A DNA stretch of 34,435 nt from Pseudomonadota bacterium (GTDB lineage: Bacteria; Pseudomonadota; Gammaproteobacteria; Acidiferrobacterales; Acidiferrobacteraceae), in NCBI GenBank assembly GCA_021784755.1, contig JAJYHM010000024.1, forward strand, positions 1-34,435, read 5' to 3'. The notes under the pieces were generated by a model, which made no database searches, was not told the origin of the DNA, and saw only the letters and a program-made list of their open reading frames with translations. Below, piece after piece: positions 30,469 through 34,040 of this stretch (positions are counted from its first letter, which is position 1; the number at the start of each line of letters is the position of its first letter). Made by a program: the position numbers and the translations under genes.

Positions 30469-30669
<201 letters not shown>

Positions 30670-30918: not shown

Positions 30919-32211
30919 TCACCGATGTCCAGATTCTGGCGCAACCGCCAAGACCCCCATTTTGATCATCCGGACAAGCCCACGCCGGATCGCGGCCTGA
31001 CGATTGCCCGCAAAGTCGCGCTCGATCTCTTCGACCATACGCACAGGCCGCGTCTCAAAACCCCCCAGGACAGCCCGGCATTCTTCGATCGACGGCAAAA
31101 TGGGCTCGGCGAACGCCACCATGGCGAGCATGCACCACCGCCGCAAGACCGCCTCGACATCGGCCCGCGTCCGCCGTAAGAGGGTCGACCGCGTGAGCGG
31201 TCTCGTGGGATAGGCCGCAAAGGCGGCAAAGGGATCCAGGCGCGCAGGCCACGCATGAGGGCGCGGGGCCATCGGTTTGGCCTGCGCCCGCGCGGCGGCG
31301 AGCTCCGCCCACAAGGCCTGATAGCGCGGGATGATCACCGACCAATCAAAAAGCGTCCGCACGCGTTCCGCCCCGGCCGCGCCCATCTGCCGCCGCAATG
31401 GAGCCGATCGCAACAGCCGCCGTAAAGCGTCCGCGGCGGCCTCCACATCGACCGCGATCAATTGGCTCGTGAACCCGCAATACCGGTCGTACCCATCGAC
31501 GCCCATCGCATACCGGTGTGCGAGATCACGCCCCTCTCCAGGCTCCGGCATCACCGTGGGAACCCGAAAACCCTCCACGCCGTCACGGACCGTGTCGCGG
31601 TATCCGTCGCAATCCGACACCACCACCGGCAAGCCCCGGGCCATGGCCTCGATCGAGGTCAACCCGAAGGTTTCCTGAAGATTGTCCGCCAACGAGCAAA
31701 ACACGTCGGCCGCCGCCCATGCCTCTCGGGTGGCGGCAGGCACCCGTCCATCGATCACGATTCGGCGGACAGCGGGGCAGGCCGCGGCGGCCGCCTCGGC
31801 GTAGGCATCCGCCACCGCGTCGTTGGCGGCCCAGCCGCATTCGATCAACACGGTCCCGCAGCCCGTGCTTGCCCTTTCCAGCGCTTGATACATCGCCAGC
31901 GGATGGGCCTTGGCGTGAAACGACAGCCGCCCGACGAACAAGACGACGACCGCTTCGGTCCCCATCCCAAGGCTCTCCCGCCCCTGGCGGCGTTCGGCGT
32001 CCTTTATGATCAGTTCGTCTGCAGCGACACCGAGCGGGATGACGGGCAATTGCGGGATCATGATGCGTCGCCCCCCGAAACGCGCTTGAAGATAGTCCGC
32101 CTGGGCCGCCAACACCGTAGTGACCATCGCGCGCACCGCCGTCGATGGGCAAATGACCGCATCCCAGGGTTGCACCGGCGCCGCCAGCCAATCGACGATC
32201 GCGTCCGTCAC
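30919..32211 (-). CDS. C-terminal fragment of the interrupted glycosyltransferase
   Basis: If the amber codon ends translation, re-initiation at GTG 32211, 69 bases beyond the stop, would give 430 aa. This holds the rest of the acceptor half, the complete GT4 donor-binding domain (EX7E near residues 190-198) and a C-terminal region of about 110 residues with the DPFAAFAAYPT motif. No good ribosome site precedes the GTG, so efficient expression is doubtful without readthrough. Confidence 0.6.
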   Translation of the reverse strand: MTDAIVDWLAAPVQPWDAVICPSTAVRAMVTTVLAAQADYLQARFGGRRIMIPQLPVIPLGVAADELIIKDAERRQGRESLGMGTEAVVVLFVGRLSFHAKAHPLAMYQALERASTGCGTVLIECGWAANDAVADAYAEAAAAACPAVRRIVIDGRVPAATREAWAAADVFCSLADNLQETFGLTSIEAMARGLPVVVSDCDGYRDTVRDGVEGFRVPTVMPEPGEGRDLAHRYAMGVDGYDRYCGFTSQLIAVDVEAAADALRRLLRSAPLRRQMGAAGAERVRTLFDWSVIIPRYQALWAELAAARAQAKPMAPRPHAWPARLDPFAAFAAYPTRPLTRSTLLRRTRADVEAVLRRWCMLAMVAFAEPILPSIEECRAVLGGFETRPVRMVEEIERDFAGNRQAAIRRGLVRMIKMGVLAVAPESGHR

Positions 32212-32280
32212 GGCATGGGAAGCGGTCGTGTGCGTGATGCCGCACAGCGACCAGGCGGCGTCGCCCGAGGCCGCGCGCGC

Positions 32281-32604
32281 CTATGCGTGCGGCCCGATCA
32301 CGGGATCCGGCCGATAGAGGCAACCCATGGCCGCCAACGACTGCGCGTCATGCGGGGCCATGGTCAGGGCCGGCCGGCCCTGGCCACTCTTACGCATCTC
32401 GGCCACAAAGCGTGCCGCGGCATCGTGATGACTCACGGCCGCCACGTATTCCGCGACACGCGCATGCCGCGCAAAACCCCTTAAGAACCCGTGGCCGGCG
32501 ACTTGTCGGCCCTTCAGGGACGGGGAGGTGACCGCATAGGCCTCGGGCTCATACAAGATGGCGGCGTTGGCCCACCGATCCTCGGGATCGCGGGAATTCG
32601 TCAT
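32281..32604 (-). CDS. N-terminal fragment of the interrupted glycosyltransferase
   Basis: This 107-aa fragment runs from ATG 32604 (AGGGAG about 11 nt upstream) to the amber codon. It contains YEPEAYAVTSPSLKGRQVAG and FVAEMRKSG, the start of the acceptor-side Rossmann half, and is too short to fold as that domain alone. It is 47 bp downstream of the tolC stop. Confidence 0.6.
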   Translation of the reverse strand: MTNSRDPEDRWANAAILYEPEAYAVTSPSLKGRQVAGHGFLRGFARHARVAEYVAAVSHHDAAARFVAEMRKSGQGRPALTMAPHDAQSLAAMGCLYRPDPVIGPHA

Positions 32605-32651: not shown

Positions 32652-34040
32652 CTATTCGTGCAATGGGACCGGCTCGATCAACATTTTGTTGATCGTAAGC
32701 ACATCGGCGATGGTCAGGCGGCCCACGGAGGCCTTCAATCGCAAACCATCCAGCAAGGTGCGATATTGCAAGGACGCAAGCGCCCGTTCGCTCTCATACA
32801 GATCGCGCTCAACCGTAAGGACATCGAGGTTCGTCCGGATGCCGACTTTGTAACCCTTGTGCGCGCCACGCACCGCCTTGCGCCCCGAGCGCACAGCAAG
32901 CGTCAACGCGACGACTTGCGTACGTCCTGCCATGACGCCCTCGTAGGCCTCGAGTGCCTGCAATTGCGCATGGCGCGATGCCTCGCGCAACTCGGCTGCG
33001 GCCTGCCGCGCGTAGGCCTGGGCCTGGGTCGCATACGCATAAGTGCCGCCGCCTGTGAAGATCGGCACGCTGACCTGCACCCCAGCCTCCCAGGATCGCG
33101 CCCGTAAAGAGTAATTGTCCGGGGTCGTGAGACTGCCTGAGGATGCATTCTGACCATAGGAGGCCACAAGGTCGACGCGGGGCGCGTACCGTGCGAACGC
33201 GCCATCGACATGCTTGCGGGCGGCCTTCAGCGCCGCCTCGGCGGCACGTACCACGGGTGCCTTGCTCCTGGCTCTTTGCACCCACGCGGCGCGGTTTTCC
33301 GGCGCGGGCTTGGGCAGCATAAGTCCCGGCGATAGCGCCTCGAGACCTGGCGTCAAGCGCACGCCGATCATTTGCTGCAATTGCGCGCACGCATTCGTTT
33401 CGGCGTTTTGCGCCCCCACCAGTTGGGCCTGCGCGCGCGCCAATTGGGCTTGCGCTTCGTCGACATCTGTGATGGCGTCGATGCCCTTGGCAAAGCCATG
33501 GCGCGCCAAACGCCACTGGGCGGTCATCGCTCGCACCTGCGCGCGGGCGGCCCGCACCGTGCGCACCGCGACCAGGACACGAAAATATGCCTGCGCCACG
33601 CGTACAATGAGATGCTGTTGCGCGCGCCTGTACAAAGCGGTGGCCTTCACGACGAGCGCCTGCGATTGCTCGTAGCGGAAGATTTGCGGGATGGCCACCA
33701 GGGGTTGCGAAAGCTGCAGACTCCATGTCCACGCCCCCACACTGCGATCGACCTGCGATGGCCCGTAGATCGGATCCTGAAAGGCCGTCTCGGCGCGCGT
33801 CTTATCGTCAGACCCCGTCAGCGCCAGATGCGGCAAGAGATGCGCGCGCGACCGGGGAATTTGCTCGCGCGCCGCGACATACGCCGCGCGCGCCGCCGCA
33901 AACGTCGGGTCATTCCTTCGCGCCAGTTGATAGGCGCTGAGAAAACTCATCCCTTGGGCCAGGGGCGATGCAAGCGCCATCGCCCCCATCAGCACACCCC
34001 TCCAACACGCGCACCGGTACCGCCTCATGACACAGCCCAT
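32652..34040 (-). CDS. TolC-family outer-membrane channel protein
   Basis: The 462-aa protein begins with a signal peptide (about residues 1-30, cleavage near PLAQG), then the TolC/OMF duplicated layout: two long helical repeats (about 35-235 and 250-450) with the YQLARRNDPTFAAARAAY opening and GVQVSVPIFTGGGTYAYA in the second half, typical of type I secretion outer-membrane factors. The ATG at 34040 overlaps the hlyD stop by 1 bp (TGATG). It forms a secretion pair with the upstream membrane-fusion gene. Confidence 0.92.
   Translation of the reverse strand: MGCVMRRYRCACWRGVLMGAMALASPLAQGMSFLSAYQLARRNDPTFAAARAAYVAAREQIPRSRAHLLPHLALTGSDDKTRAETAFQDPIYGPSQVDRSVGAWTWSLQLSQPLVAIPQIFRYEQSQALVVKATALYRRAQQHLIVRVAQAYFRVLVAVRTVRAARAQVRAMTAQWRLARHGFAKGIDAITDVDEAQAQLARAQAQLVGAQNAETNACAQLQQMIGVRLTPGLEALSPGLMLPKPAPENRAAWVQRARSKAPVVRAAEAALKAARKHVDGAFARYAPRVDLVASYGQNASSGSLTTPDNYSLRARSWEAGVQVSVPIFTGGGTYAYATQAQAYARQAAAELREASRHAQLQALEAYEGVMAGRTQVVALTLAVRSGRKAVRGAHKGYKVGIRTNLDVLTVERDLYESERALASLQYRTLLDGLRLKASVGRLTIADVLTINKMLIEPVPLHE

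What the first reader, a model, noticed from the sequence alone, without database searches (positions are those of the whole stretch)
30919..32604. Full-length glycosyltransferase frame broken only by one amber codon
TAG at 32281-32283 splits an otherwise open 561-codon frame. Twenty-three codons after it are family-like (SLCG, ITHTTASHA) and lie before any normal start, so the downstream part cannot simply be a separate gene. No other stop or frameshift is present in over 1.6 kb, so the lesion is recent, phase-variable, suppressed by a tRNA, or a base error. At least yggS, dapD, soeC, moaC and moaE end in TAG, so amber is not globally reassigned.
Basis: partly seen in the sequence, partly recalled or inferred. 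Interest (0 to 1): 0.8.

Follow-up and report, generated by a model that had tools for sequence, protein, structure and literature searches.

The report
Recently broken surface-sugar enzyme gene
A glycosyltransferase gene in what is probably an acid-loving bacterium is split by one stop codon, and its closest relative carries the same gene broken in two other places, so this is an ordinary, recently dying gene and not a new way of reading the genetic code.

Summary
On the minus strand (32604..30919) a 561-codon frame is interrupted only by TAG at codon 108 (32283..32281). It encodes a GT4 (GT-B fold) glycosyltransferase; 75 full-length homologues from many bacterial groups run through this point as one gene of ~555 aa. 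The column is aromatic (W 56, F 11, Y 3 of 75), and the same-genus genome G013 has Trp there. But G013's copy, at the same place after a HlyD/TolC pair, is itself broken by a different stop (TAA, codon 303) and a 1-bp deletion. A third genus member keeps only a ~125-codon remnant; the other 11 genus members and the rest of the order searched lack the gene. The window copy also has private changes at conserved residues (P317S, W332C, W545R). RF1 is intact, TAG ends nine other window genes, none of 35 tRNAs found has a CUA anticodon, and no repeat could slip. Best reading: a recently, independently inactivated pseudogene at a patchily distributed RTX/type I secretion locus beside tRNA-Pro. A base error in this assembly cannot be excluded without reads. 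Ordinary; the RTX linkage of the glycosyltransferase family is the only mildly new point.

The parts
30919..32604 (-). Interrupted GT4 glycosyltransferase gene (561 codons, ATG to TGA)
   Evidence: Translation, Pfam PF00534, homologues over full length, GT-B model
32281..32283 (-). In-frame amber codon 108; Trp in the sister genome, aromatic in 70 of 75 homologues
32281..32604 (-). N-terminal ORF, 107 aa, part of the N-terminal Rossmann-like domain
   Evidence: no Pfam match on its own
30919..32211 (-). C-terminal ORF from GTG codon 132, 430 aa, catalytic GT domain; no Shine-Dalgarno-like stretch
31654..31656 (-). Codon 317: Ser where 75 of 75 homologues and the sister have Pro
31609..31611 (-). 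Codon 332: Cys where 74 of 75 homologues and the sister have Trp
30970..30972 (-). Codon 545: Arg where 63 of 75 homologues and the sister have Trp
31696..31698 (-). Codon 303: intact here (Cys), TAA in the sister genome G013
31066..31066 (-). Base that is deleted in the sister genome (frameshift there)
32652..34040 (-). TolC-type outer membrane efflux protein (intact), directly upstream of the glycosyltransferase gene
   Evidence: its G013 orthologue matches PF02321
34040..34435 (-). HlyD-type membrane fusion protein, cut by the contig end
30469..30545 (+). tRNA-Pro(GGG); collinearity with other genomes changes partner here

Best explanation
The frame is a GT4 glycosyltransferase gene that was functional until recently and has been inactivated by a Trp-to-amber nonsense substitution at codon 108, in a lineage where the gene is no longer needed. 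Translation would end after 107 residues, inside the N-terminal Rossmann-like domain, so no active enzyme is made. In working relatives the enzyme probably glycosylates, or helps build the glycan around, an RTX-repeat surface protein exported by a type I secretion system, because it is repeatedly encoded beside such genes. Shown: the interruption, the single-gene ancestry, the independent breakage in the sister genome, absence or a remnant in the rest of the genus. Inferred: loss of function, relaxed selection, and the RTX-related role.
For: One internal stop in 561 codons. 75 homologues cross the site in one frame; column W/F/Y in 70 of 75. Sister G013: same locus, 96.5% identical DNA, Trp at codon 108, but its own TAA at codon 303 and 1-bp deletion. 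G002: remnant of ~125 codons at another place. 11 other genus members and all further family and order genomes searched: none. Window-private changes P317S, W332C, W545R at conserved columns. dN/dS 0.34 against 0.20 in tolC. Two nonsense changes match the ~2 expected among 66 neutral substitutions. prfA present and open, TAG the ordinary stop of nine other window genes, no CUA tRNA. RTX/type I secretion neighbourhood.
Against: dN/dS difference from neighbours is not significant (p 0.43), and most of the frame still looks constrained, so decay is recent at most. The window comes from one assembly of 86% completeness and no reads were available. E-x7-E catalytic motif and most invariant residues are intact.
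Confidence: 0.85

Rival explanations
1. Consensus base error or a minority strain variant in this metagenome assembly; the gene is really intact in the species.
For: One single-base difference from a Trp codon; G013 has Trp there; no reads available; 73-contig assembly.
Against: The sister copy is broken independently; the window copy has further private changes at conserved columns; the neighbouring genes in the window are open.
Confidence: 0.09
2. The stop is read through (suppressor tRNA, reassigned codon or programmed readthrough), so full-length enzyme is made.
For: Frame downstream is open and similar to homologues to its end; about ten tRNAs are missing from this assembly (35 found, 45-46 in complete Acidiferrobacter genomes, PMC8889020).
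Against: prfA intact; TAG ends nine other window genes; none of 35 tRNAs has CUA; no PylS match over cut-off; the stop is not shared by any homologue at this column; TAG is followed by G, not by a known readthrough context.
Confidence: 0.02
3. The two ORFs make two polypeptides (reinitiation at GTG 32211) that work together as a split glycosyltransferase.
For: Split GT-B enzymes exist (Alg13/Alg14; own knowledge); 430-aa ORF holds the catalytic domain.
Against: The cut is inside a domain, not between domains; 23 codons including invariant R110, H125 and nearly invariant S119, G122, T126 would be lost; no Shine-Dalgarno-like stretch before the GTG, 69 nt gap; no homologue is split here.
Confidence: 0.02
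4. The gene is switched on and off in the population, with inactive alleles favoured at times (for example to change the cell surface against phages).
For: Different lesions in two sister genomes while the adjoining type I secretion genes, and in G013 the 3887-aa RTX ORF, stay open; stray in-frame stops also in homologues L031, L061 and L094.
Against: No repeat or inversion mechanism at the lesion; G013 carries two lesions, so it will not revert easily; plain gene loss explains the same pattern.
Confidence: 0.02

Closest known systems
Nonsense-mutation pseudogenes of accessory surface-polysaccharide or protein glycosyltransferases
   Same: Open frame with one recent in-frame stop, patchy distribution, different lesions in related genomes
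   Different: Nothing essential; here next to an RTX/type I secretion locus and beside a tRNA gene
GT4 glycosyltransferases of GT-B fold (PimB', BshA, MshA, GlgM structures)
   Same: PF00534 match, E-x7-E motif, GT-B model with these as nearest solved folds
   Different: ~170 residues longer than these; sequence identity to solved relatives only 12-20%; no NCBIfam equivalog reaches its cut-off
RTX-protein type I secretion loci (ABC, HlyD, TolC plus RTX protein)
   Same: In G013 the same locus holds an ABC exporter, a 3887-aa RTX ORF, HlyD and TolC just before the glycosyltransferase
   Different: A dedicated GT4 neighbour; no paper describing this pairing was found in two narrow searches

Membership tests
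Pseudogene (inactivated protein gene) | Homologous to intact single-ORF genes but interrupted by a disabling lesion | tested here: met
   75 homologues open through codon 108; TAG here
Pseudogene (inactivated protein gene) | Relaxed selection | tested here: inconclusive
   Private changes at invariant columns P317S, W332C; dN/dS 0.34 vs 0.20, p 0.43
Pseudogene (inactivated protein gene) | No full-length product | not testable with these tools
   Needs proteomics or reporter
GT4 glycosyltransferase, GT-B fold | Glycos_transf_1 domain, E-x7-E motif, GT-B fold | tested here: met
   PF00534 60.3 bits vs cut-off 26.4; E311, E319 invariant; model and fold search
Amber reassignment or suppression | Loss of RF1 or presence of a CUA tRNA, TAG avoided as stop | tested here: not met
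   prfA 534.5 bits, cut-off 423; no CUA in 35 tRNAs of an 86% complete genome; TAG ends nine other genes
Pyrrolysine insertion at UAG | PylS and its tRNA | tested here: not met
   Best match 29.8 bits vs cut-off 178, the level of ordinary synthetases in control genomes
Slipped-strand phase variation | Short tandem repeat with length change at the lesion | tested here: not met
   Substitution only; no repeat array at the codon

The most novel reading that the evidence does not exclude
The enzyme belongs to an uncharacterised ~555-aa GT4 family that serves RTX proteins exported by type I secretion, and its repeated inactivation next to intact export genes reflects selection for cells without that surface sugar.
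Probability: 0.08. Interest if true: 0.4.

Novelty: new member of a known kind. Interest (0 to 1): 0.12.

Why it matters
It removes a candidate for stop-codon recoding: the long open frame is explained by how recent the loss is. The side result, that this glycosyltransferase family is often encoded beside RTX proteins in several bacterial groups, is a testable hint that RTX surface proteins of environmental bacteria may be glycosylated.

Tried and rejected
Recoding or suppression (prfA, tRNA anticodons, PylS): no support. A stop column shared among homologues: L061 and L031 have in-frame TAG and L094 several stops, but at other columns, so there is no conserved readthrough site. A separate C-terminal gene: none among homologues. 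Phase variation by repeats: none. Defence function: no PADLOC match. dN/dS contrast with neighbours: right direction, no statistical power. The RTX gene in the window's own genome was not found, which is uninformative because the contig ends in HlyD. Literature on glycosyltransferases paired with RTX proteins: narrow searches, nothing relevant.

Full report
Observation. The frame lies on the minus strand, 32604..30919. It begins with ATG behind a purine-rich stretch, ends with TGA, and holds one internal stop, TAG at codon 108 (32283..32281). The next in-frame start is GTG at codon 132 (32211), without a Shine-Dalgarno-like stretch.

What the frame encodes. Pfam places the middle of the protein in Glycos_transf_1 (60 bits against a cut-off of 26). 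A model of the frame, read through the stop as Trp and supported by 41 homologues, has mean pLDDT 92.5; its nearest solved structures are GT4 enzymes of GT-B fold (PimB', GlgM, BshA, MshA). E311 and E319 form the E-x7-E motif and are invariant. Codon 108 is in helix 104-111 of the N-terminal half, with strands before it (15-17, 53-56, 79-82, 95-97) and after it (119-123, 149-152), so the stop cuts through the N-terminal Rossmann-like domain and neither ORF alone holds a complete one (inference).

Single-gene ancestry. Eighty homologues from beta-, gamma- and alphaproteobacteria, cyanobacteria, Chlorobi and others were fetched. Five were set aside (two cut by a contig end, three with stops of their own at other columns). 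The other 75 cross the site in one frame, mostly of 543-606 aa. The column is W in 56, F in 11, Y in 3, other in 5. No homologue was found that starts at the position of the GTG.

The sister genome. The window is contig C27 of a 2.36-Mb, 73-contig, 86%-complete genome. Of 13 other genomes of the genus only G013 has the gene over its full length, at the same place, collinear with the window from 30501 to the contig end at 96.5% identity. It has Trp at codon 108 but TAA at codon 303 and a 1-bp deletion at window 31066. G002 has only about codons 419-543, elsewhere in its genome, inside a contig that carries other genes on both sides. The other 11 genus members, 4 further family members and 39 further order members have none, and only 3 of 368 other genomes sampled from the class have a relative at E below 1e-60. 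So in this genus the gene is patchy and every copy found is broken, in different ways.

State of decay. Between the two copies dN/dS is 0.34, against 0.20 for tolC; the contrast is not significant. At columns that are at least 95% one residue, the window has two private changes (P317S, W332C) and G013 none; W545R is a third window-private change, at a column with Trp in 63 of 75. Two nonsense changes equal the 1.8-2.0 expected from 66 neutral substitutions. This fits a gene under constraint until lately and now free to decay.

Alternatives tested. RF1 is present in an open frame. Infernal finds 35 tRNAs; ARAGORN reads their anticodons and none is CUA. Complete Acidiferrobacter genomes have 45-46 (PMC8889020), so about ten are missing here and suppression is not strictly excluded. 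No PylS model above cut-off. There is no tandem repeat or close inverted repeat at the codon. A base error cannot be ruled out without reads; the independent breakage in G013 and the other private changes make it less likely.

Surroundings. Upstream of the gene are a TolC-type and a HlyD-type gene, the latter cut by the contig end. In G013 the locus continues with a 3887-aa open frame with 34 GGxGxD motifs (RTX repeats, PF00353), two WD40-repeat ORFs and an ABC exporter. 17 of 80 homologue loci also have an ORF with three or more GGxGxD motifs within 5 kb, against 0 of 17 other loci of this genus (the controls are mostly shorter and from one genus, so this is suggestive only). Pfam confirms RTX repeats in L018, L021, L030, L041, L044 and L048. 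The likely role of the working enzyme, glycosylation linked to an RTX surface protein, is inferred from this neighbourhood.

Island border. Collinearity with G013 stops at 30501, inside tRNA-Pro (30469-30545). G001, G003 and G010 share the genes up to and including tRNA-Pro and then differ. G013 has the 3' half of tRNA-Pro beside the glycosyltransferase, and the complete tRNA-Pro with the soe/moa/uup side about 660 kb away in the opposite orientation. This is what integration at tRNA-Pro, or an inversion between its repeats, would leave (inference).

Identity of the organism. Size and contig number of G001 (3,398,398 bases, one contig) and G013 (3.3 Mb, 4 contigs) fit Acidiferrobacter sp. SPIII/3 and Af. 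thiooxydans as listed in PMC8889020.

Verdict. A real, correctly described, recently inactivated glycosyltransferase gene. Ordinary.

Noticed in passing
30469-30545 (tRNA-Pro) and L129:11417-11462, L150:5177-5253: The window joins the soe/moa/uup side to the glycosyltransferase side through tRNA-Pro; in G013 the two sides are about 660 kb apart, in opposite orientation, each with the 3' half of tRNA-Pro. Integration at tRNA-Pro, an inversion between its repeats, or a misjoin over the 46-bp repeat could explain it.
   Followed up: partly
L148:4519-4568, L148:18717-18765, L147:82-127: Further copies of the 46-50-bp tRNA-Pro 3' half in G013 (C2:28.5 kb, 42.7 kb) and at the end of a G004 contig, as left by several integrated elements.
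   Followed up: partly
L149 and L129 (G013 C2:54884-66544): An open frame of 3887 aa with 34 RTX motifs between WD40-repeat ORFs and HlyD/TolC, beside the broken glycosyltransferase.
   Followed up: partly
L018, L021, L029, L030, L041, L042, L044, L048, L049, L054, L056, L060, L063, L066, L068, L069, L073: The ~555-aa GT4 family is encoded near RTX-repeat ORFs in unrelated groups; L030 and L021 also have a second GT4 gene (PF12000) directly downstream.
   Followed up: partly
L061 near 5286, L031 near 2426, L094 1147-2862: In-frame stops in homologues of this family in other assemblies, at other columns than codon 108.
   Followed up: partly
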